A stretch of DNA of 58,005 nucleotides. Source: an uncultured Schlesneria sp. (lineage in GTDB: Bacteria; Planctomycetota; Planctomycetia; Planctomycetales; Planctomycetaceae). The translations under genes and the position numbers were made by a program. This document shows positions 168 through 21,566 of this stretch, one piece after another; position 1 is the first letter of the stretch; each line of letters starts with the position of its first letter. The stretch covers positions 1-58,005 of the forward strand of contig CAIOKO010000228.1 of the NCBI GenBank assembly GCA_903858935.1. The letters are read 5' to 3'. The notes under the pieces were generated by a model, which saw nothing but the letters and a program-made list of their open reading frames with translations, searched no databases and was not told the DNA's origin.

Positions 168-410
168 GGGCAGTGAGTCGCCATACTCAACTTACAAAAA
201 CTGACAACCTCGGATCGATGATGAGCATGCGTCGAAAACCCTTCAAGCGTTGCCTACGCATCTTGGCAGATAAATCCGTTTGAATTTCTGATTTGGGAAG
301 GTGCGAATTGTAATTCGTCTGGTTCTCGAACAATGCTCATCACGCGGAGCGATGATGGCTACTTTGGTCGGAGGCAAAGCCTCGCTGGAGTCTTGGGAGT
401 CGCAGTGTCT

Positions 411-448
411 TTCCCTTCTGTCGTCCAATTTCCCTTCTGTCGTCCAAA
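411..448. repeat. two-copy 19-bp tandem repeat
   Basis: TTCCCTTCTGTCGTCCAA occurs at 411-428 and again at 430-447, giving a perfect tandem duplication with a 19-bp period. It sits in the non-coding stretch downstream of the ferrochelatase gene. No function is evident. The rest of 86-520 shows no convincing gene. Confidence 0.75.
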
Positions 449-520
449 GAGCACTGCTTGACCGAAGACGCTCAAGCAGTGGCACATAAGACTTTGGCGT
501 AACGAAAAAAGTGATCCGTC

Positions 521-14920: not shown

Positions 14921-16222
14921 GTGGACATGCTGCAGGTTATGGTGTTCGTGCTGATGGCGACCGCCTGTTGGAGCGCCCTCGGTTGTGATGCACTTCGTGA
15001 GTTTTCCTACAGCCGCCTGGAAGAACTTTGCGAAAAACGAGGCGTTGCAAACCGCTTTGGCGAGATCTTGAAGAAACAGGGCGAAGCCTTACTCGCCCTG
15101 GAATTTTTGCTGACGATGTCAACACTCGGCCTGGCTGCGGTACTCTGCTGCTGGATCGGCTGGCCCAATCAAACATCACCTTTCAACCAGCAGTTGCAGT
15201 TCATATTGAATTACGCGTTTTTCGCCGCGCTGGCGTTTGTCGCGGCCGACTTGCTCCCATGGACGATTGCTCGCGTGGCATCGGAACGGTTCTTGTGCTC
15301 CTGCTGGCCCGGCATCGAATTTTTGCAGACGATACTGACACCCCTGTTGTGGATCGCATTACAACTGGACCGTTACGCCCATCGAATCACGGGCCGAACC
15401 GAGCTGGAGACAGACGACACCTCGAAGATCGAAGAAGAAATTCGATCGGTGGTTGAAGAAGGGGAACGTGAAGGGGTTCTCGAATCAGGCTCGACAGCGA
15501 TGATTCAGCGAGTGATGCAACTGCAGGACGAAGATGTGGGGGCCATCTTGACGCCAAGAACAGAAATGGACTGCGTCAGTGCCGACCTGACATTGGAAGA
15601 GGCGAGAAAGCAATTGATTGAATCGGGACACAGTCGGATGCCAGTCATTGGCGACTCAACCGATGATGTACTTGGAATTCTTTACGCAAAAGACCTGCTG
15701 AAAGCACTGGCTCCGACCCGGAACGGCCATACGATCCCCGTCCTGCGCGATATCATTCGGGAACCTGTCTTTGTCCCAATGACCACAGCCATTCCGTCAC
15801 TTTTGGAACTCATGAAGCGGCAGAAAATCCATATTGCGATCGTTCATGACGAGTATGGAGGAGTCGCAGGACTGGTGACGATGGAAGATATCCTGGAAGA
15901 AATCGTCGGAGAGATTTCCGACGAATACGATGACGAGCAAGTCAGCGATGACATTCGAGAACTGAACCCGACAACAATCGAAGTTTCGGCTCGCGTACGA
16001 CTCGATGAACTCAACCGGCGATTCGATTTTGAACTTCCCGAAGACGGTGAATTCGACACAGTCGGCGGCTTTGTCTTTTCGCAAAAGGGAAGTATGCCTT
16101 CGTCGGGTGAATCATTTGCGTGGCACAAGTTGTTATTCACCGTTCTGAACGCCGACGCACGCGTCGTCAAACGATTGCGAATCGAAAGAACGCCCCTGTC
16201 TTCGAACGGCAATGGTCATTGA
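14921..16222 (+). CDS. CorC/HlyC-family CBS-domain membrane protein
   Basis: A hemolysin-C/CorC-type protein, a family linked to divalent cation (Mg/Co) efflux. Order: N-terminal membrane region with several hydrophobic segments (FLLTMSTLGLAAVLCCWIGW and YAFFAALAFVAADLLPWT), then tandem CBS domains (GHSRMPVIGDSTDDVLGILY and IHIAIVHDEYGGVAGLVTME), then the CorC_HlyC domain (FDFELPEDGEFDTVGGFVF). Start is GTG at 14921, one base after the ybeY stop; ATG 14927 is an alternative. Close coupling suggests one transcript. The cation specificity cannot be read from sequence. Confidence 0.88.
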   Translation: MDMLQVMVFVLMATACWSALGCDALREFSYSRLEELCEKRGVANRFGEILKKQGEALLALEFLLTMSTLGLAAVLCCWIGWPNQTSPFNQQLQFILNYAFFAALAFVAADLLPWTIARVASERFLCSCWPGIEFLQTILTPLLWIALQLDRYAHRITGRTELETDDTSKIEEEIRSVVEEGEREGVLESGSTAMIQRVMQLQDEDVGAILTPRTEMDCVSADLTLEEARKQLIESGHSRMPVIGDSTDDVLGILYAKDLLKALAPTRNGHTIPVLRDIIREPVFVPMTTAIPSLLELMKRQKIHIAIVHDEYGGVAGLVTMEDILEEIVGEISDEYDDEQVSDDIRELNPTTIEVSARVRLDELNRRFDFELPEDGEFDTVGGFVFSQKGSMPSSGESFAWHKLLFTVLNADARVVKRLRIERTPLSSNGNGH

Positions 16223-16606
16223 CCAGATCGATCGATTCAGAATCAAAACGAACCTGTCAGCGTCAGTTTGGGCAATTGACTCGAAGCAGTTGCTCGTTGA
16301 ATCGTTGATCTGATGCGATGACGAGCGTCGTCCCTGAGAACGGTTCGGACGCTAGCAGCGTGGGAGACGCTGCTAGCGTCGGACTGAATTGGCACTCGCG
16401 TTCCCTCGCGGTTCAGACCCCCTCGCAATATGGTGAATCGAACCATGGTCGCTTGAAAAAACCAATTTTGGCCGCCCCGAATGGGGCTTTTCTCTTTCAT
16501 TTGGTTCGTATGCTGGGGCGGAAACTGCCTCAGGCTGTATCCGGTCGCCACGATGTGGCTTAAAAATCGACTCGCGTTTTCAATGGGGGCCTCGAATCGA
16601 TTTCCA

Positions 16607-16677
16607 TGAGCACCTTCCAAACGTTAAGAACGTTGTCTTTATTGCCTGTTGACATGCGAATAAATATTTTTTATTAT
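16607..16677 (+). promoter_or_regulatory. sigma70-like promoter with conserved 24-bp upstream block
   Basis: A 24-base block starting TGAGCACCTTCCAAACG (16607-16630) is followed after 18 bases by TTGACA (16649-16654), a 17-base AT-rich spacer and TATTAT (16672-16677), close to an ideal -35/-10 pair. The same 24 bases occur at 57508-57531, again with TTGACA exactly 18 bases later. No good reading frame starts immediately downstream, so a small RNA is possible. Confidence 0.55.
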
Positions 16678-17018
16678 TTTATCGTTATTTATGTTTACAA
16701 AAGACAACTCGAATCTGGAGAATTAACCTAAAACCTCGCTTCTCTACGAGGCGCTGTTAACCGAACGTGAAAAATCCGGGGGAGCCGAAGCGGCTGGAAA
16801 ATAGTCATCAGAGAGTCGAAAGTTGATGAATCAAGGAATCGCTTTTTCTTGATCTGGTCTACTCTTGAGGAACTTGACGTCGGAAGTGTCGCCAAAGTTC
16901 CTCGGGTTCATGGAGCGGTAGCTCCTGGCGGCCCGCTTGTGGCGGCTTACCACTTTCTCCTCGACAACTCTCTAGCAACATCAGTTCGCTTGGTTTGCCA
17001 GGGAGGGATGATGTGATT

Positions 17019-17139
17019 CGAACTCGATCGAACTCGAACAAATTCGAACACCCCAAAAAAATGGGGGAAATGATCGGCAAAAGCCTATGAATTACGAGGA
17101 ACGGTCGAACTCGATCAAACTCGAACGAACTTTGACACC
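17019..17139. repeat. direct pair of 3 x 10-bp word arrays (CGAACTCGAN)
   Basis: Left cluster 17019-17052: CGAACTCGAT, CGAACTCGAA, CAAATTCGAA, CACC. Right cluster 17106-17139: CGAACTCGAT, CAAACTCGAA, CGAACTTTGA, CACC. Both are in 10-bp register and in direct orientation 87 bases apart. The spacer contains AAAAGCCTATGAATTACGAG followed by GAAC, which resembles the spacer of the next array. Confidence 0.8.
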
Positions 17140-17325
17140 CAATTTTGTGGCGGCCGGATTTTCACAAGAGGGAAGAAGATTTTTGATCAGAAGTCGACGA
17201 AGGGAAGAAAATCACATCCAGGCGGGGTGCCGTCAGAACCGTCCGGCCCGCTGTGGGCGGATGCTTGATTCTGAATCCCCTTGTTACCTCGTTAACTTCT
17301 ATTCAAAGGACTTTGTATTTCATCG

Positions 17326-17395
17326 TTGGCAAAGTTGACCAACTTCAAAACTGCGAAAATGCCTATGAAATAAGGAACTTGACCAACTTTGGCAA
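17326..17395. repeat. TTGACCAA / TTGGCAA word array
   Basis: Words TTGGCAA (17326), TTGACCAA (17335), TTGACCAA (17379) and TTGGCAA (17389) form two clusters with 9-10 bp steps. The spacer reads AAAATGCCTATGAAATAAGG then AAC, closely like the spacer of the preceding CGAACTCGA array (AAAAGCCTATGAATTACGAGGAAC). The word differs but the plan and spacer are shared. Confidence 0.7.
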
Positions 17396-17525
17396 CTTTT
17401 TTTTCAAAGTATGCAATGAATATTTTGTCTGATGTTTCGGAACGCCGTGAAGACGCCTAAGCCTTGTCGTCCGAGACCAGTGGCTGGAGGTCGCCGCTTC
17501 GGCTGGTTGGTGTCACGCACCAGAG

Positions 17526-17607
17526 TTGCGCAAACATTCAGATCCCTGACACGTTAGGAACGGCCTGGTTTCCGCCATAGTTGCGCAAAAATCCGACTGT
17601 TGCGCAA
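17526..17607. repeat. TTGCGCAA array, copy 1
   Basis: The 8-bp palindrome TTGCGCAA occurs at 17526, 17581 and 17600, so the spacings are 55 and 19 bases. The bases before the second word read TTCCGCCATAG. The same geometry recurs at 18105-18186 and, with small changes, at 18383-18478. Confidence 0.8.
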
Positions 17608-17642
17608 GTCTTTTGAAAAGTATCGATCGGAAAGAATTCAAC

Positions 17643-17735
17643 CACGGATAACGCCGATGGCCACGGATGGAAGAAGAAGAGGTTAATGTCCGGACTTTTC
17701 GCCTTTATCAGTGCCCATCCGCGTTATCCGTGGTT
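17643..17735. repeat. inverted pair of ~10-bp word arrays (CACGGATNNC type)
   Basis: The left arm (from 17641) begins ACCACGGATAACGCCGATGG, then CCACGGATGG; CGGAT-like words start at 17645, 17654 and 17664. The right arm (17704-17735), read on the opposite strand, begins ACCACGGATAACGCGGATGG, then GCACTGAT. The arms are inverted around a 33-base spacer. The design matches the elements at 9673-9793 and 34657-34938. Confidence 0.75.
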
Positions 17736-17995
17736 AAAAATCTTTTCCGATGCACTTTGCGCTGGTTCAGGTGTGCCTGGAAGGGGCTCGACAACCCGTC
17801 TCATTTGATTAAAAGCGAAAGCATTTTTCGGAAAAACAGATTCCTGCACCCCGTCAGGCGCCGCTGTGAAGGATTTTTTGCGGCGAGATTCGCGGTAAAT
17901 CAGGCGATCCGACGAAACCCTAACGCCGCCCTCGCAGCGGTGGGGTGATGCTTTGTAAAACCCTTCAGGACACTCTCATCAAACTAACTGATATT

Positions 17996-18034
17996 CCCGG
18001 GGTGACGCTCGAAGACGAGCTTGCCCCGGGCTGA
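17996..18034. repeat. 39-bp palindromic repeat, copy 1 of 2
   Basis: CCCGGGGTGACGCTCGAAGA followed by CGAGCTTGCCCCGGGCTGA folds into a stem with CCCGGGG pairing CCCCGGG. A second copy at 55508-55546 matches at 32 of 39 positions, and positions 3 and 33 change together (C/G here, T/A there), keeping the pair. Confidence 0.75.
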
Positions 18035-18104
18035 TTTCTCCTGCCCTTGAACAGGGGAGAATACCATCGGCACCTGAATCGAACGACTTAGTCGCTCACC
18101 ATAG

Positions 18105-18186
18105 TTGCGCAAACTTTCAGACCTCAAAAATGCCGAAAAAGGACTGCTTTCCGCCATAGTTGCCCAAAAATCCCATAGTTGCCCAA
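18105..18186. repeat. TTGCGCAA array, copy 2
   Basis: TTGCGCAA at 18105, TTGCCCAA at 18160 and 18179: spacings 55 and 19 bases, identical to copy 1. The spacer AAATGCCGAAAAAGGACTGC followed by TTTCCGCCATAG is nearly identical to copy 3. Confidence 0.8.
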
Positions 18187-18301
18187 GTTTAAAATCGAAA
18201 AGCACTGGCGAGTGAAGAGACACGGAAATGGCATACAACGTCATATTGATTCGTCGACCGACGACTACCGCTTCCATTGCGAATTCGTACGGGCTGCATA
18301 G

Positions 18302-18478
18302 TTGCCCAATTGCCGCCAGCGTGGATCTGCCTTGTCATCCAAGATCAGCGGTTGAAAGCCGCCGCCACGGTCTCGACCATTGTTGCGCAAAACCGTTGCG
18401 CAAGTTCACAAACTCCTGAAATGCCGAAAAAGGGACTGCTTTCCGCCATAGTTGCCCAAGAATCCCATAGTTGCCCAA
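18302..18478. repeat. TTGCGCAA array, copy 3 (expanded)
   Basis: TTGCCCAA at 18302; TTGCGCAA at 18383 and 18396; TTGCCCAA at 18452 and 18471. The last three show spacings 56 and 19, one base from the 55/19 pattern of copies 1 and 2. The spacer AAATGCCGAAAAAGGGACTG and the following TTTCCGCCATAG are shared with copy 2. A (GA)n microsatellite starts 20 bases downstream. Confidence 0.8.
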
Positions 18479-18497
18479 GTTTAAAAAAGTATAAATC

Positions 18498-18528
<31 letters not shown>

Positions 18529-18944
18529 CCGTCGCTGATACCGATCGTCACCAATCGGAAATGAAGCGGGCTTTGTCAAAAATGAGAAGGAGACATTTGG
18601 TCGCTGCCACGCGGGGTCGGGAGGCTACTCGCATAACGAAGCAGGTCAGGAAACCATTCCACGATGAACGTCGCGGCACACACCAGTCAAATTCCCGATT
18701 TTAAGAAAATCGCAAAAAAGAAGCACCTCGATTCAATCCATAGTTTCAACGATGACAAAGACTTCTCTCACATTTCCGACCAGGTGGGGTTAGCAACCGA
18801 AAATGCAGGGAACTGTGTCGGAACGCCGATTCACGATGGAATGACTGAAGAAATACCGCCATAATGACCGTCGTTGGTCAAAATGGAGTTCCGACCATAT
18901 CCAACCCGAATTGCGTCAAGCGCTGACAGGATTTCTTCCAAGTT

Positions 18945-21566
18945 ATGATCATCCGTAAGGTGCTCGCACTTCGAGGTCCTAATATCTGGTCCCGGCATAC
19001 CGTCTTGGAAGCCTGGGTTGATCTGGGTGCGCTCAAAGATACGTCGTCAGCCCAGATCCCCGGCTTTAACGACCGATTGATGACCTGGCTGCCAACGATG
19101 ATCGAGCATCGCTGCAGCGTTGGCGAAAGAGGCGGTTTTTTCCAGCGACTTCGTTGGGGAACATATCTCGCACACATTCTCGAACACACAACGCTTGAGC
19201 TGCAAACACTTTGTGGCACACCAGTTGGATATGGCCGTGCTCGAGAAACGTCCGAGGAAGGCCTTTACAAAGTCGCCATCCGATATCAGGACGAGACGCT
19301 CGGCAAGGCCTGCCTCCAGACAGCTCGCGAATTGTTGATGTCAGCTGTATTCGACCTGCCATTCGACATCGATTCGCATTTAAAGCGCCTGCGTGAATTG
19401 GCAGACCGAGTTTGCCTTGGTCCCAGCACGAACGCCATCGTCGACGCGGCCAAAGCTCGGAATATTCCTTACCGCCGATTGAATTCTGGAAGTCTGGTTC
19501 AATTTGGGCAAGGGAAGAAGCAGCGGCGAATCTGGACAGCAGAGACCGACTTTACCAGCGCCATCGCCGAATCAATCGCTCAAGATAAACAGCTGACGAA
19601 AATGATGCTGACGGCGGCAGGGATTCCGGTCCCTGAAGGTCGAGAAGTCGAAAGCCCTGAAGATGCCTGGGAAGCAGCGAAAGCGATTGAAGGACCAGTC
19701 GTCGTGAAGCCCGTCGATGGAAATCACGGTCGCGGCGTCTGCATGGATCTGACCGAAGAATCTCAAGTTATTGCAGGGTATCACGAAGCGCTCAAAGAAG
19801 GTTCAGGCGTGATCGTTGAGCGATTTGCAAGAGGTTCTGAGCATCGATTGCTTGTCGTGGGACAGAAGCTGATTGCGGCAGCAGCAGGGGATGCGGCAGC
19901 GGTCGTCGGCGATGGCAAGCATACAGTCCAGGAATTGATTGAAATCCAGGTCAACTCAGATCCTCGGCGCGGTGAAGATGAAACAAAACCGCTCGATCTT
20001 GTACGAATCATTCCTCTTACGATACTGACGCTGGCGAATCAGGGTTGTAAGCTTGAGACTGTCCTCGAGCCTGGCAAAAAAGTCATTGTTCGTCGTAACG
20101 ACAATCTCTCACGTGATGTCACCGATCTCGTCCATCCCTCCGTTGCTGAACATGCCGTTTTGGCCGCTCAAGTTGTCGGGCTGGATATCGCAGGAATCGA
20201 TCTCGTTACCGAAGACATTTCGCGTCCACTTGAAGAGCAGGGTGGTGTGATTGTCGAGGTCAACGCAGGTCCGGGACTGCTTATGCACCTCAAGCCTGAA
20301 ATTGGCAAACCACGTCCGGTTGGTGAGGCGATCATCGACCATATGTTCCCAGATCCGGCAGACAGCGGTCGAATTCCCATTTTTTCCGTCACCGGCACAA
20401 ATGGAAAGACGACTGTAGCACGCCTGGTCACGGCGGTTTTAAAAGCATCGGGACGAACAGTCGGGCTGGCATGCACGGATGGAATCATTATCGACGGGCG
20501 GACGATCGACGTCGGAGATTGCGCGGGCCCTCGAAGCGCACGCAACGTCCTGTTGAATCCGATCCTCGACGCGGCGGTATTTGAGGCAGCTCGCGGGGGG
20601 ATTTTGCGTGAGGGACTTGGTTTTGACAAATGCGACGTCGCGGTCGTCACCAATATCGGGGAAGGGGACCATCTCGGCCAGCACTACATCGATTCGCCGA
20701 GGGAAATGTTCAAGGTCAAACGAACTCCGGTTGACGTCGTCTTGCCGACCGGAACGGCGGTCTTGAACGCTACGGATCCTCTTGTCGTCGAAATGAAAGA
20801 ACTTTCGGCAGGTGGTGTGACGTTTTTTGCAATTGATCCGGCCCATCCGGTCATTCGCGAGCATCGGGGTAACGGAAAACGAGTTGTTTTCGTGCGTCAT
20901 TCCTACGTGATCCTGTGCGAAGGGGACACGGAAACTCAGCTTGTCGCGTTGCAGGACTTACCATCGACCCACGGAGGTCGAGTCGGGTTCCAGATTGAAA
21001 ATGTACTGGCTGCAGCGGCTGCGACCTGGGCTCTCGGTGTTCCGTTAAACGACATTCGCAATGGATTACAGTCGTTTCAAGGTAATTTGCAGGATGATCC
21101 CGCCCGGTTTAACGTCCTGGAGTCGGCCGAAAAGACCATTGTCGTTATGGACGGGCGAAATTTATCGGCACTACGGGCAGTGATTGCGGGAATCACTGAC
21201 TTTCCCCATTCGAAACGTTCAGTCGTCTATTCAGCAGAAGAAGACCGCCGCGATATCGATCTCGTCAATCAAGGTGAGCAGTTGGGAACCTCTTTTGATC
21301 GAGTCATTTTGTGTGAAATTGAAAAGGGAGTCGATCGGCCAGTTGGCGAGGTCACCCGGTTGTTGAGAGCAGGAGTTGAAAAAGGGACTCGAGCGAAGAG
21401 TATTTCAGAAATCCGCGACTGGTCAAATGCCGTGGATACTGGATGGCGCGAGCTGCAACCAGGGGAACTTTTGCTGATCCAGTCTTCAACAGTCCCTAAG
21501 ACAGTCAAGAAATTACAGACAATGCTCGGTTTGGAACTGGCAGAAGAAACATCGAACCAGGGATGA
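18945..21566 (+). CDS. cphA: cyanophycin synthetase, copy 1 (degenerate Mur C-domain)
   Basis: Makes cyanophycin (multi-L-arginyl-poly-L-aspartate) by two ATP-dependent steps. The 873 residues match CphA length. The N-domain opens LALRGPNIWS and keeps HILEH (H77, E80, H81), the motif of the cryptic metallopeptidase site known in CphA1 enzymes. The ATP-grasp domain has VVVKPVDGNHGRGV and VIVEVNAGPG. The Mur-like domain has VTGTNGKTT (482-490). The C-terminal lobe, however, reads VVMDGRNLSAL at 733 where canonical enzymes have DYAHNP or DYGHN, and SAEEDRRDIDL where PGDRRD is usual. The degraded C-lobe suggests it may need copy 2 or has a changed role; that is inference. Confidence 0.88.
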   Translation: MIIRKVLALRGPNIWSRHTVLEAWVDLGALKDTSSAQIPGFNDRLMTWLPTMIEHRCSVGERGGFFQRLRWGTYLAHILEHTTLELQTLCGTPVGYGRARETSEEGLYKVAIRYQDETLGKACLQTARELLMSAVFDLPFDIDSHLKRLRELADRVCLGPSTNAIVDAAKARNIPYRRLNSGSLVQFGQGKKQRRIWTAETDFTSAIAESIAQDKQLTKMMLTAAGIPVPEGREVESPEDAWEAAKAIEGPVVVKPVDGNHGRGVCMDLTEESQVIAGYHEALKEGSGVIVERFARGSEHRLLVVGQKLIAAAAGDAAAVVGDGKHTVQELIEIQVNSDPRRGEDETKPLDLVRIIPLTILTLANQGCKLETVLEPGKKVIVRRNDNLSRDVTDLVHPSVAEHAVLAAQVVGLDIAGIDLVTEDISRPLEEQGGVIVEVNAGPGLLMHLKPEIGKPRPVGEAIIDHMFPDPADSGRIPIFSVTGTNGKTTVARLVTAVLKASGRTVGLACTDGIIIDGRTIDVGDCAGPRSARNVLLNPILDAAVFEAARGGILREGLGFDKCDVAVVTNIGEGDHLGQHYIDSPREMFKVKRTPVDVVLPTGTAVLNATDPLVVEMKELSAGGVTFFAIDPAHPVIREHRGNGKRVVFVRHSYVILCEGDTETQLVALQDLPSTHGGRVGFQIENVLAAAAATWALGVPLNDIRNGLQSFQGNLQDDPARFNVLESAEKTIVVMDGRNLSALRAVIAGITDFPHSKRSVVYSAEEDRRDIDLVNQGEQLGTSFDRVILCEIEKGVDRPVGEVTRLLRAGVEKGTRAKSISEIRDWSNAVDTGWRELQPGELLLIQSSTVPKTVKKLQTMLGLELAEETSNQG

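What the first reader, a model, noticed from the sequence alone, without database searches (positions are those of the whole stretch)
17019..18478. Paired arrays of short words at helical spacing, with changing words but a shared plan
Seen directly: CGAACTCGAN x3 at 10-bp steps twice in direct orientation (17019, 17106); TTGACCAA/TTGGCAA at 9-10 bp steps twice (17326-17395); TTGCGCAA or TTGCCCAA at spacing 55 then 19 bases in two copies (17526, 18105) and 56 then 19 in a third (18396). The spacers of the first two are alike (AAAAGCCTATGAATTACGAG against AAAATGCCTATGAAATAAGG, each then ending GAAC or AAC) although the words differ. Words spaced one or two DNA turns apart would present the same DNA face to a protein. 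Inference: a family of protein-binding or mobile elements whose recognition words diversify while the scaffold is kept, placed upstream of the cyanophycin synthetase pair. I cannot name a described element of this kind.
Basis: partly seen in the sequence, partly recalled or inferred. Interest (0 to 1): 0.8.

Follow-up and report, generated by a model that had tools for sequence, protein, structure and literature searches.

The report
Polar intergenic arrays of palindromic words
The paired word arrays are real and belong to a family of modular repeats between the genes of a few Schlesneria bacteria, which in every sampled site all point one way and mostly run in one order, and whose short two-fold-symmetric words look like docking sites for a paired protein that has not been found.

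Summary
The gap 16223-18944 holds five units of three related types: C (TCGNNCRA words, 10-bp step), A (TTGNNCAA, 9 bp) and B (TTGNNCAA, mostly 19-20 bp), each with a core beside the arrays. The type C core was found only in the window's genome and four sister genomes of 170 in the order; the type A core in the same five of 15 genus genomes and, as an exact pattern, only in Schlesneria MAGs. In the own-genome sample all 124 neighbouring unit pairs share orientation, and 23 of 27 multi-type clusters run C, A, B (0 of 5000 label shuffles as ordered). Words next to the core show dyad conservation T-Y-G-n-n-C-R-A with a free centre; outer words less so. At one orthologous site three species keep units but use different words. 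Folding is not the conserved feature; gene strand is irrelevant in the own genome. Best reading: a clade-restricted, BOX-like modular repeat whose words are sites for an unidentified dimeric protein. The repeat is well supported; the protein is inference.

The parts
17018..17052 (+). Type C unit, left word array (10-bp steps, TCGNNCRA + AC)
   Evidence: Sequence; repeat family D2; type C profile hit 17011-17144
17079..17104 (+). Type C core (AAAAGCCTATGAATTACGAGGAACGG)
   Evidence: Core pattern with up to 3 mismatches: 83 hits in the own genome, hits in 4 sister genomes, 0 in the 165 others of the order, 0 in the reversed control
17105..17137 (+). Type C unit, right word array
   Evidence: column profile of 61 such arrays
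17138..17215 (+). Type C tail that leads towards the A unit (approximate limits)
   Evidence: Homologous C-to-A spacers in other own loci
17326..17345 (+). Type A unit, left word array (TTGGCAA, TTGACCAA)
17346..17378 (+). Type A core (CAAAACTGCGAAAATGCCTATGAAATAAGGAAC)
   Evidence: Profile hit 17340-17381, E 7.5e-11; core pattern match at 0 mismatches
17379..17402 (+). Type A unit, right word array ending in a T run
17521..17615 (+). Type B unit 1 (CAGAG/CATAG TTGCGCAA words, spacing 55 then 19)
   Evidence: families D1, D3, D4; type B profile
18100..18194 (+). Type B unit 2 (TTGCGCAA, TTGCCCAA, TTGCCCAA)
   Evidence: stretches 18091-18486 are 68-75% alike to three tandem units upstream of the orthologous cyanophycin synthetase gene in G145
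18297..18309 (+). Single extra type B word (CATAGTTGCCCAA)
   Evidence: Family D1
18378..18486 (+). Type B unit 3

Best explanation
A clade-restricted modular interspersed repeat. Each unit is a conserved core of about 25-30 bp with short word arrays beside it; units of three related types are joined in one orientation and mostly in the order C, A, B. Shown: the family, its restriction to five genomes of one genus within what was searched, its polarity and order in the sampled loci, homologous spacers, changes in unit and word number, and shared position at some orthologous sites. Inferred: (1) an ancestral composite spread to many intergenic sites and units then multiplied in place, which explains the polarity without any present-day directional process; (2) the words (T-Y-G-n-n-C-R-A, free centre) are sites for a homodimeric DNA-binding protein that binds side by side along the array, the core positioning or nucleating the complex; (3) because the centre is little read, words can drift between loci and species while the half-sites stay. 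What the complex does (chromosome organisation, mobilisation, other) is open.
For: Range: A core own 47, G142 20, G144 14, G145 32, G146 49, the ten other genus genomes 0, reversed control 0 (genus only); C core own 83, G142 45, G144 1, G145 63, G146 36, 165 others 0; C words alone, without the core, in 4 of 170 genomes (own 42, G142 20, G145 9, G146 16), all core-bearing; exact A pattern: 56 stretches, all titled uncultured Schlesneria. Polarity: own 124 of 124 neighbouring pairs, other genomes 154 of 154 (some of these loci overlap), order in 23 of 27 and 31 of 39 clusters, 0 of 5000 shuffles each. Homologous spacers. Dyad profile: first right word of type C, entropies 0.53, 0, 1.57, 1.15.12.56, 0 over 61 units; inner words of type A alike in shape over 80 units. 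Palindromic centres in type C 39 of 61 against 27.7 (0 of 5000) and 31 of 61 against 21.2 (2 of 5000). Word shift at one site: G000 TTGCCCAA x16, G146 TTGCGCAA x11, G145 mixed. Word number varies by 9-bp steps in G144 units. Position shared at the AKR2 site with G145 and G146 and at the AKR1 site with G146.
Against: No protein is known; RHH_1, the family I first thought of, has no match in the own genome and in only 2 of 15 genus genomes. The outer words of type A do not show a clean dyad profile (left outer .92, 1.08, 1.18, 1.27, 1.03, 1.23.19.42; right outer .19.96, 1.23, 1.17.99.47.83.34). Type A has no excess of palindromic centres (61 of 80 against 58.4; 55 of 80 against 56.3), and its centre changes are mostly transitions, as plain mutation would give. 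Pairing between positions 2 and 7 of the word is not significant (p 1.0 and 0.41). The linker AC after the first type C word is as conserved as the half-sites, so the unit could equally be CRA-AC-TYG with two free bases. Exceptions to the order: 4 of 27 own and 8 of 39 other clusters. Common descent inflates every column statistic; units at least 88% (A) or 90% (C) alike were removed, no more. Upstream of the cyanophycin synthetase gene the units are not conserved: the flank held of G142 has none, and G146 shows only a remnant word beside the shared flank.
Confidence: 0.47

Rival explanations
1. A selfish or neutral composite repeat with minisatellite-like words and no binding protein; words are homogenised within a locus by slippage and unequal exchange.
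For: Word number changes by single units; long homogeneous arrays of 20-bp units at L007; within-locus centre identity 0.92 against 0.62 between loci for own type B words (374 and 2866 pairs); no relation to gene strand; outer type A words lack the dyad profile.
Against: Neutral drift does not predict conservation of T.G..C.A with a free centre in words with different linkers, nor an excess of palindromic centres in type C. Adjacent type C words are not more alike than across units (17 of 61 against 14.6, 1111 of 5000).
Confidence: 0.3
2. A miniature mobile element whose arrays are transposase or recombinase binding sites, moved by a partner protein encoded elsewhere.
For: Many dispersed copies; 24 closely similar units of about 105 bp in G144, with abrupt ends in an alignment of 6 of them; type A arms are partly inverted repeats.
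Against: No target duplication seen by eye in G144 flanks, and many of those copies share a loose 5' flank; some positions are shared by sister species; the 8 Y1 transposase loci of the own genome that were examined (of 13 matches) carry other repeats and no type A unit at E 0.01.
Confidence: 0.13
3. A transcribed hairpin RNA or terminator, the two arrays being the arms of a stem and the T run its end.
For: Some units fold well alone (z -5.11 for L079, -3.55 for L049, -4.06 for the window's type C); a T run follows the right array in many type A units; type A left and right centres are complementary in 50 of 80 against 41.7 (24 of 5000).
Against: RNAalifold finds no pair on 80 units; covariation 0.099 against 0.098 shuffled (225 of 500); a type B unit z +1.73 and type A L009 z +1.20 (8 sequences folded in all); swapped arms pair nearly as well (112 of 2000 shuffles as good); no Rfam match; orientation unrelated to genes in the own genome.
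Confidence: 0.06
4. Operators that regulate the neighbouring genes, such as the cyanophycin synthetase pair.
For: In G144 the gene on the 3' side is on the same strand in 9 of the 11 copies with both neighbours called (OS 5, SS 4, SO 1, OO 1; of 24 copies, 10 lay too near an end of the stretch and 3 inside a called frame).
Against: In the own genome the four strand classes are about equal (21 gaps), 10 neighbour proteins are of varied families and units lie up to 1.8 kb from the next called gene.
Confidence: 0.04

Closest known systems
BOX elements of streptococci (PMC3049150, passages seen)
   Same: Composite intergenic repeat made of modules, with a variable number of tandem copies of a module
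   Different: Range and phylum differ; here several module types each multiply and carry dyad-word arrays. BOX is predicted there to fold if transcribed; here folding is not the conserved feature. Box sequences were not compared
REP repeats with RAYT transposases (PMC3733652, passages seen)
   Same: Many short palindromic repeats between genes; reported to occur in Planctomycetes too
   Different: No conserved stem-loop; the GTAG/CGTC tag was not searched for; none of 8 examined Y1 transposase loci has a type A unit
Centromere arrays of plasmids: parS of pSM19035, parH of TP228 (PMC5016525, passages seen), parC of R1 (a title in its reference list); MetJ met boxes and pSK41 repeats are recalled
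   Same: Tandem short words bound by a centromere-binding protein; R1 parC has ten direct repeats flanking a promoter
   Different: Here 130 core hits in one genome assembly (47 A and 83 C), and RHH_1 is absent from the own genome; no partner operon was found beside them, but only 10 neighbour proteins were scanned
CRISPR or integron attC arrays (recalled)
   Same: Polar arrays of a repeated unit
   Different: Spacers are homologous between loci, and no cassette genes were called in the element gaps read; cas genes and integrases were not searched for

Membership tests
BOX elements | Ordered modules with a variable number of inner modules | tested here: met
   Order C, A, B in 23 of 27 own clusters; unit numbers vary
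BOX elements | boxA, boxB and boxC sequences | not tested
   No box model was run; range limited to Schlesneria makes identity unlikely
BOX elements | Predicted folded form shared by members | tested here: not met
   No consensus pairs and no covariation in 80 type A units
REP/RAYT | Association with a Y1 (PF01797) transposase gene | tested here: not met
   8 of 13 own Y1 places examined; best type A profile hit there E 0.71
REP/RAYT | Conserved imperfect stem-loop | tested here: not met
   Type A stem not conserved by covariation
REP/RAYT | GTAG or CGTC tag at one end | not tested
   Not searched for
MITE | Terminal inverted repeats | tested here: inconclusive
   Type A arms are partly complementary, as palindromic words must be; termini of types B and C not examined
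MITE | Target site duplication or empty site | tested here: inconclusive
   None seen by eye in G144 flanks; orthologous sites were occupied, cut by contig ends, not syntenic or changed
RHH-bound centromere/operator array | Tandem short words with dyad symmetry | tested here: met
   Type C words and inner type A words; outer type A words only partly
RHH-bound centromere/operator array | A ribbon-helix-helix protein in the genome (RHH_1, PF01402) | tested here: not met
   0 matches in the own genome, 2 of 15 genus genomes; other RHH families not tested
Structured RNA family | Match to a described family or covarying stem | tested here: not met

The most novel reading that the evidence does not exclude
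A dedicated chromosomal recognition system of one bacterial clade: one dimeric protein family reads over a hundred polar arrays per genome through half-sites TYG/CRA, and the free two-base centres and word choice shift between sister species, so that arrays act as a fast-changing centromere-like or chromosome-organising address.
Probability: 0.12. Interest if true: 0.82.

Novelty: new variant of a known kind. Interest (0 to 1): 0.5.

Why it matters
Bacterial intergenic repeats are mostly known as single palindromes or simple mobile elements (recalled). A composite with fixed polarity and a preferred order, whose symmetric words change between sister species at the same site while scaffold and half-sites stay, offers a clean test of whether a repeat is kept by a binding protein or merely copied. 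Such clusters may also explain some assembly breaks in these genomes, as a number of them sit near contig ends.

Tried and rejected
Hairpin or RNA reading: at first type A looked like a long stem with compensating words; the alignment test removed this. Coding reading: frames through the units were tried by eye on the G144 copies; word changes would fall on first and second codon positions, and core lengths vary by one or two bases in A1, so it was dropped without a test of selection. RAYT link. Replication-strand link: clusters on one contig point both ways (C27, C16, C14, C234), so it was dropped without a skew analysis. Plasmid and phage origin: one 101-base type A query, no match in either collection; one exact type A and one exact type C pattern in viral contigs, no match. 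Neighbour genes: 10 flanking proteins, varied families, two with PSCyt2/PSD1. A remark in notebook entry 3 that G142 has a Y1 transposase upstream of the cyanophycin synthetase gene is not confirmed: a 100-residue piece gave no Pfam match.

Literature: searches. One search (Schlesneria and repeat) found 22 papers, 10 listed; none was opened. I saw no listing that names such a family; that is all that can be said.

Superseded steps: gene caller (faulty, replaced; the caller is home-made); type C part (filter error, redone; runs of N, redone). Rows dropped: units at least 88-90% alike; 3 of 64 type C rows; 7 own and 17 other unclassified units. L055 and L286 overlap, so a few own type C pairs count twice; several other-genome loci overlap too. 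Part of the own sample was fetched because it held hits.

It also left out the weak profile of outer type A words, the raised lags 8 and 18 and the missing units upstream of the cyanophycin synthetase gene in G142 and G146. For these the main odds went from 0.50 to 0.47, the neutral rival from 0.27 to 0.30 and the novel case from 0.13 to 0.12.

Full report
What is there. The gap between the CBS/CorC gene (14927-16222) and the first cyanophycin synthetase gene (18945-21566; Pfam) holds, all on the + strand, one type C unit (17018-17137), one type A unit (17326-17402) and three type B units (17521-17615, 18100-18194, 18378-18486).

A family. The window is contig C228 of a 7.93-Mb, 280-contig genome. 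TTGCSCAA pairs 10-13 apart give 81 hits there (both strands; a TTGCGCAA pair counts on both) with 0 in the reversed control; of the 169 other genomes of the order only G145 (17) and G146 (51) have more than two. The type A core with up to 3 mismatches has 47 hits in the own genome and occurs in 4 of the 14 other genus genomes (not searched beyond the genus in this form). The type C core has 83 and occurs in the same 4, with none in the other 165 of 170 genomes of the order. The window's organism is therefore inferred to be a Schlesneria. Viral contigs, phages and plasmids gave nothing.

Anatomy. Type A: GAAGTTGGYCAAGTTGGCCAACTTCAAACCTGCGAAAAAGCCTATGAAAYANGGAACTTGGCCAACTTKGCCAACTTTTTT, with variation. 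Type C: words TCGNNCRA joined by AC, a variable middle with an A run, core CCTATGAATTACGAGGAATGGTCGAAG, more words, then a tail TGACACCAAATTTCGCGGCGGC...GAACAGAAGG...ACGAAGG that in many loci runs into the A unit. Type B: TTGNNCAA preceded by CATAG or CAATG, spacing about 47 then 12 between words, or plain tandem 20- and 35-bp arrays. A and C intergrade in some units. In G144 the element is a repeat of about 105 bp with two cores, each followed by 2 to 5 words; word number changes by 9 bp between copies (24 loci of that genome, read; abrupt ends in an alignment of 6).

Polarity and order. After strict classification the own sample (1,668,256 bases; partly chosen by hits, partly by place) holds 61 A, 63 B and 50 C units, and 7 unclassified that were left out. 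All 124 neighbouring pairs within 2 kb share a strand (34 of them of different type); in sister genomes 154 of 154, with some loci overlapping. Order C, A, B is complete in 23 of 27 own and 31 of 39 other multi-type clusters; 0 of 5000 label shuffles reach the observed score in either set. An earlier, looser count gave 206 of 206 pairs. Spacers between types are homologous across own loci. This is what descent from one composite with later unit multiplication predicts. Clusters on one contig point either way, and strand relative to neighbouring genes is free in the own genome (21 gaps; 165 of 171 units outside called genes). In G144 9 of 11 copies have a same-strand gene on the 3' side, which is the one hint of a link to genes.

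Words. Columns were anchored on the core, not on the words. In 61 type C units the first right word has entropies 0.53, 0, 1.57, 1.15.12.56, 0 and the second 0, 1.1.79, 1.54, 1.44.33.91.56; the centres are palindromic more often than chance (39 of 61 against 27.7; 31 of 61 against 21.2). In 80 type A units the half-sites of the inner words are conserved and the centre freer (left .10.36.17.76.60.33.10.34; right .17.56.38.80.70, 0, 0, 0), but the outer words lack a clean dyad profile and there is no palindrome excess. Own type B words keep TTGC.CA with the fifth base freest (110 words). So one rule, T-Y-G-n-n-C-R-A, covers three families with linkers of 2, 1 and about 12 bp. That is the signature expected of a homodimer's site; it is not proof of one.

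Words change, scaffold stays. Upstream of the YjeF-type gene, between shared flanks, G000 has 16 TTGCCCAA (and 9 TTGCCCAT/C), G146 11 TTGCGCAA and 2 TTGGCCAA, and G145 a mixture led by TTGCCCAA 11, TTGCTCAA 9, TTGGCCAA 6 and TTGGTCAA 4; G142 ends at a contig end there. At the second aldo/keto reductase site (AKR2) units lie on the same side and in the same sense in G145 and G146 with changed numbers; in G142 they lie on the other side of the gene. At the first one (AKR1) G146 has C, A, A, A where G000 has C, C, A, B; G145 ends at a contig end and G142 shows no unit and no further synteny. Upstream of the cyanophycin synthetase gene G145 has three type B units, the flank held of G142 has none, and G146 has a single remnant word beside the shared flank. 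So some sites are old and shared, others have been lost or rebuilt.

What it is not. The arms of type A pair in 83.4% of cells, but shuffled partners do as well (83.5%), the covariation score is 0.099 against 0.098, and RNAalifold predicts no pair. Fold z-scores of 8 sequences range from -5.11 to +1.73. No Rfam family matches. The own Y1 transposase loci examined carry other repeats (8 of 13). RHH_1 is absent from the own genome.

Judgement. The repeat family, its clade within what was searched, its polarity, its preferred order and the word rule next to the cores are shown. The binding protein and any function are inferred. In architecture it works like a BOX-type modular repeat; in word layout like an operator or centromere array bound by dimers; it is filed as a member of neither.

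Noticed in passing
window 17637-17738: Inverted repeat (arms 32 nt, 88%; AACCACGGATAACGCC... / ...GCGTTATCCGTGGTT) after a type B unit; similar pieces follow type B units at L011 and L013.
   Followed up: no
window 219-498 and 16858-16959: Members of other intergenic repeat families. In the first own sample 55,227 of 238,426 intergenic bases matched another intergenic region.
   Followed up: partly
window 18498-18523: Perfect (AG)13 tract shortly after the last type B unit.
   Followed up: no
L007 5747-6560 and L010 9898-10534: Long type B arrays: about 40 units of 20 bp, and alternating 14- and 21-bp steps.
   Followed up: partly
L146, L151: Y1 transposase genes flanked by other repeats, as expected of REP/RAYT pairs; 13 PF01797 matches in the own genome.
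   Followed up: partly
L185-L236 (24 G144 loci): Most units of G144 end in one of two forms...CCAACGTTTTTTCACAAAATCG or ...CCAAGCAAATTTGCAAAAAAT, and many share a GC-rich 5' flank.
   Followed up: partly
loci L036-L075, intergenic: Repeats at lags 8 and 18 that the A/B/C units do not explain.
   Followed up: no
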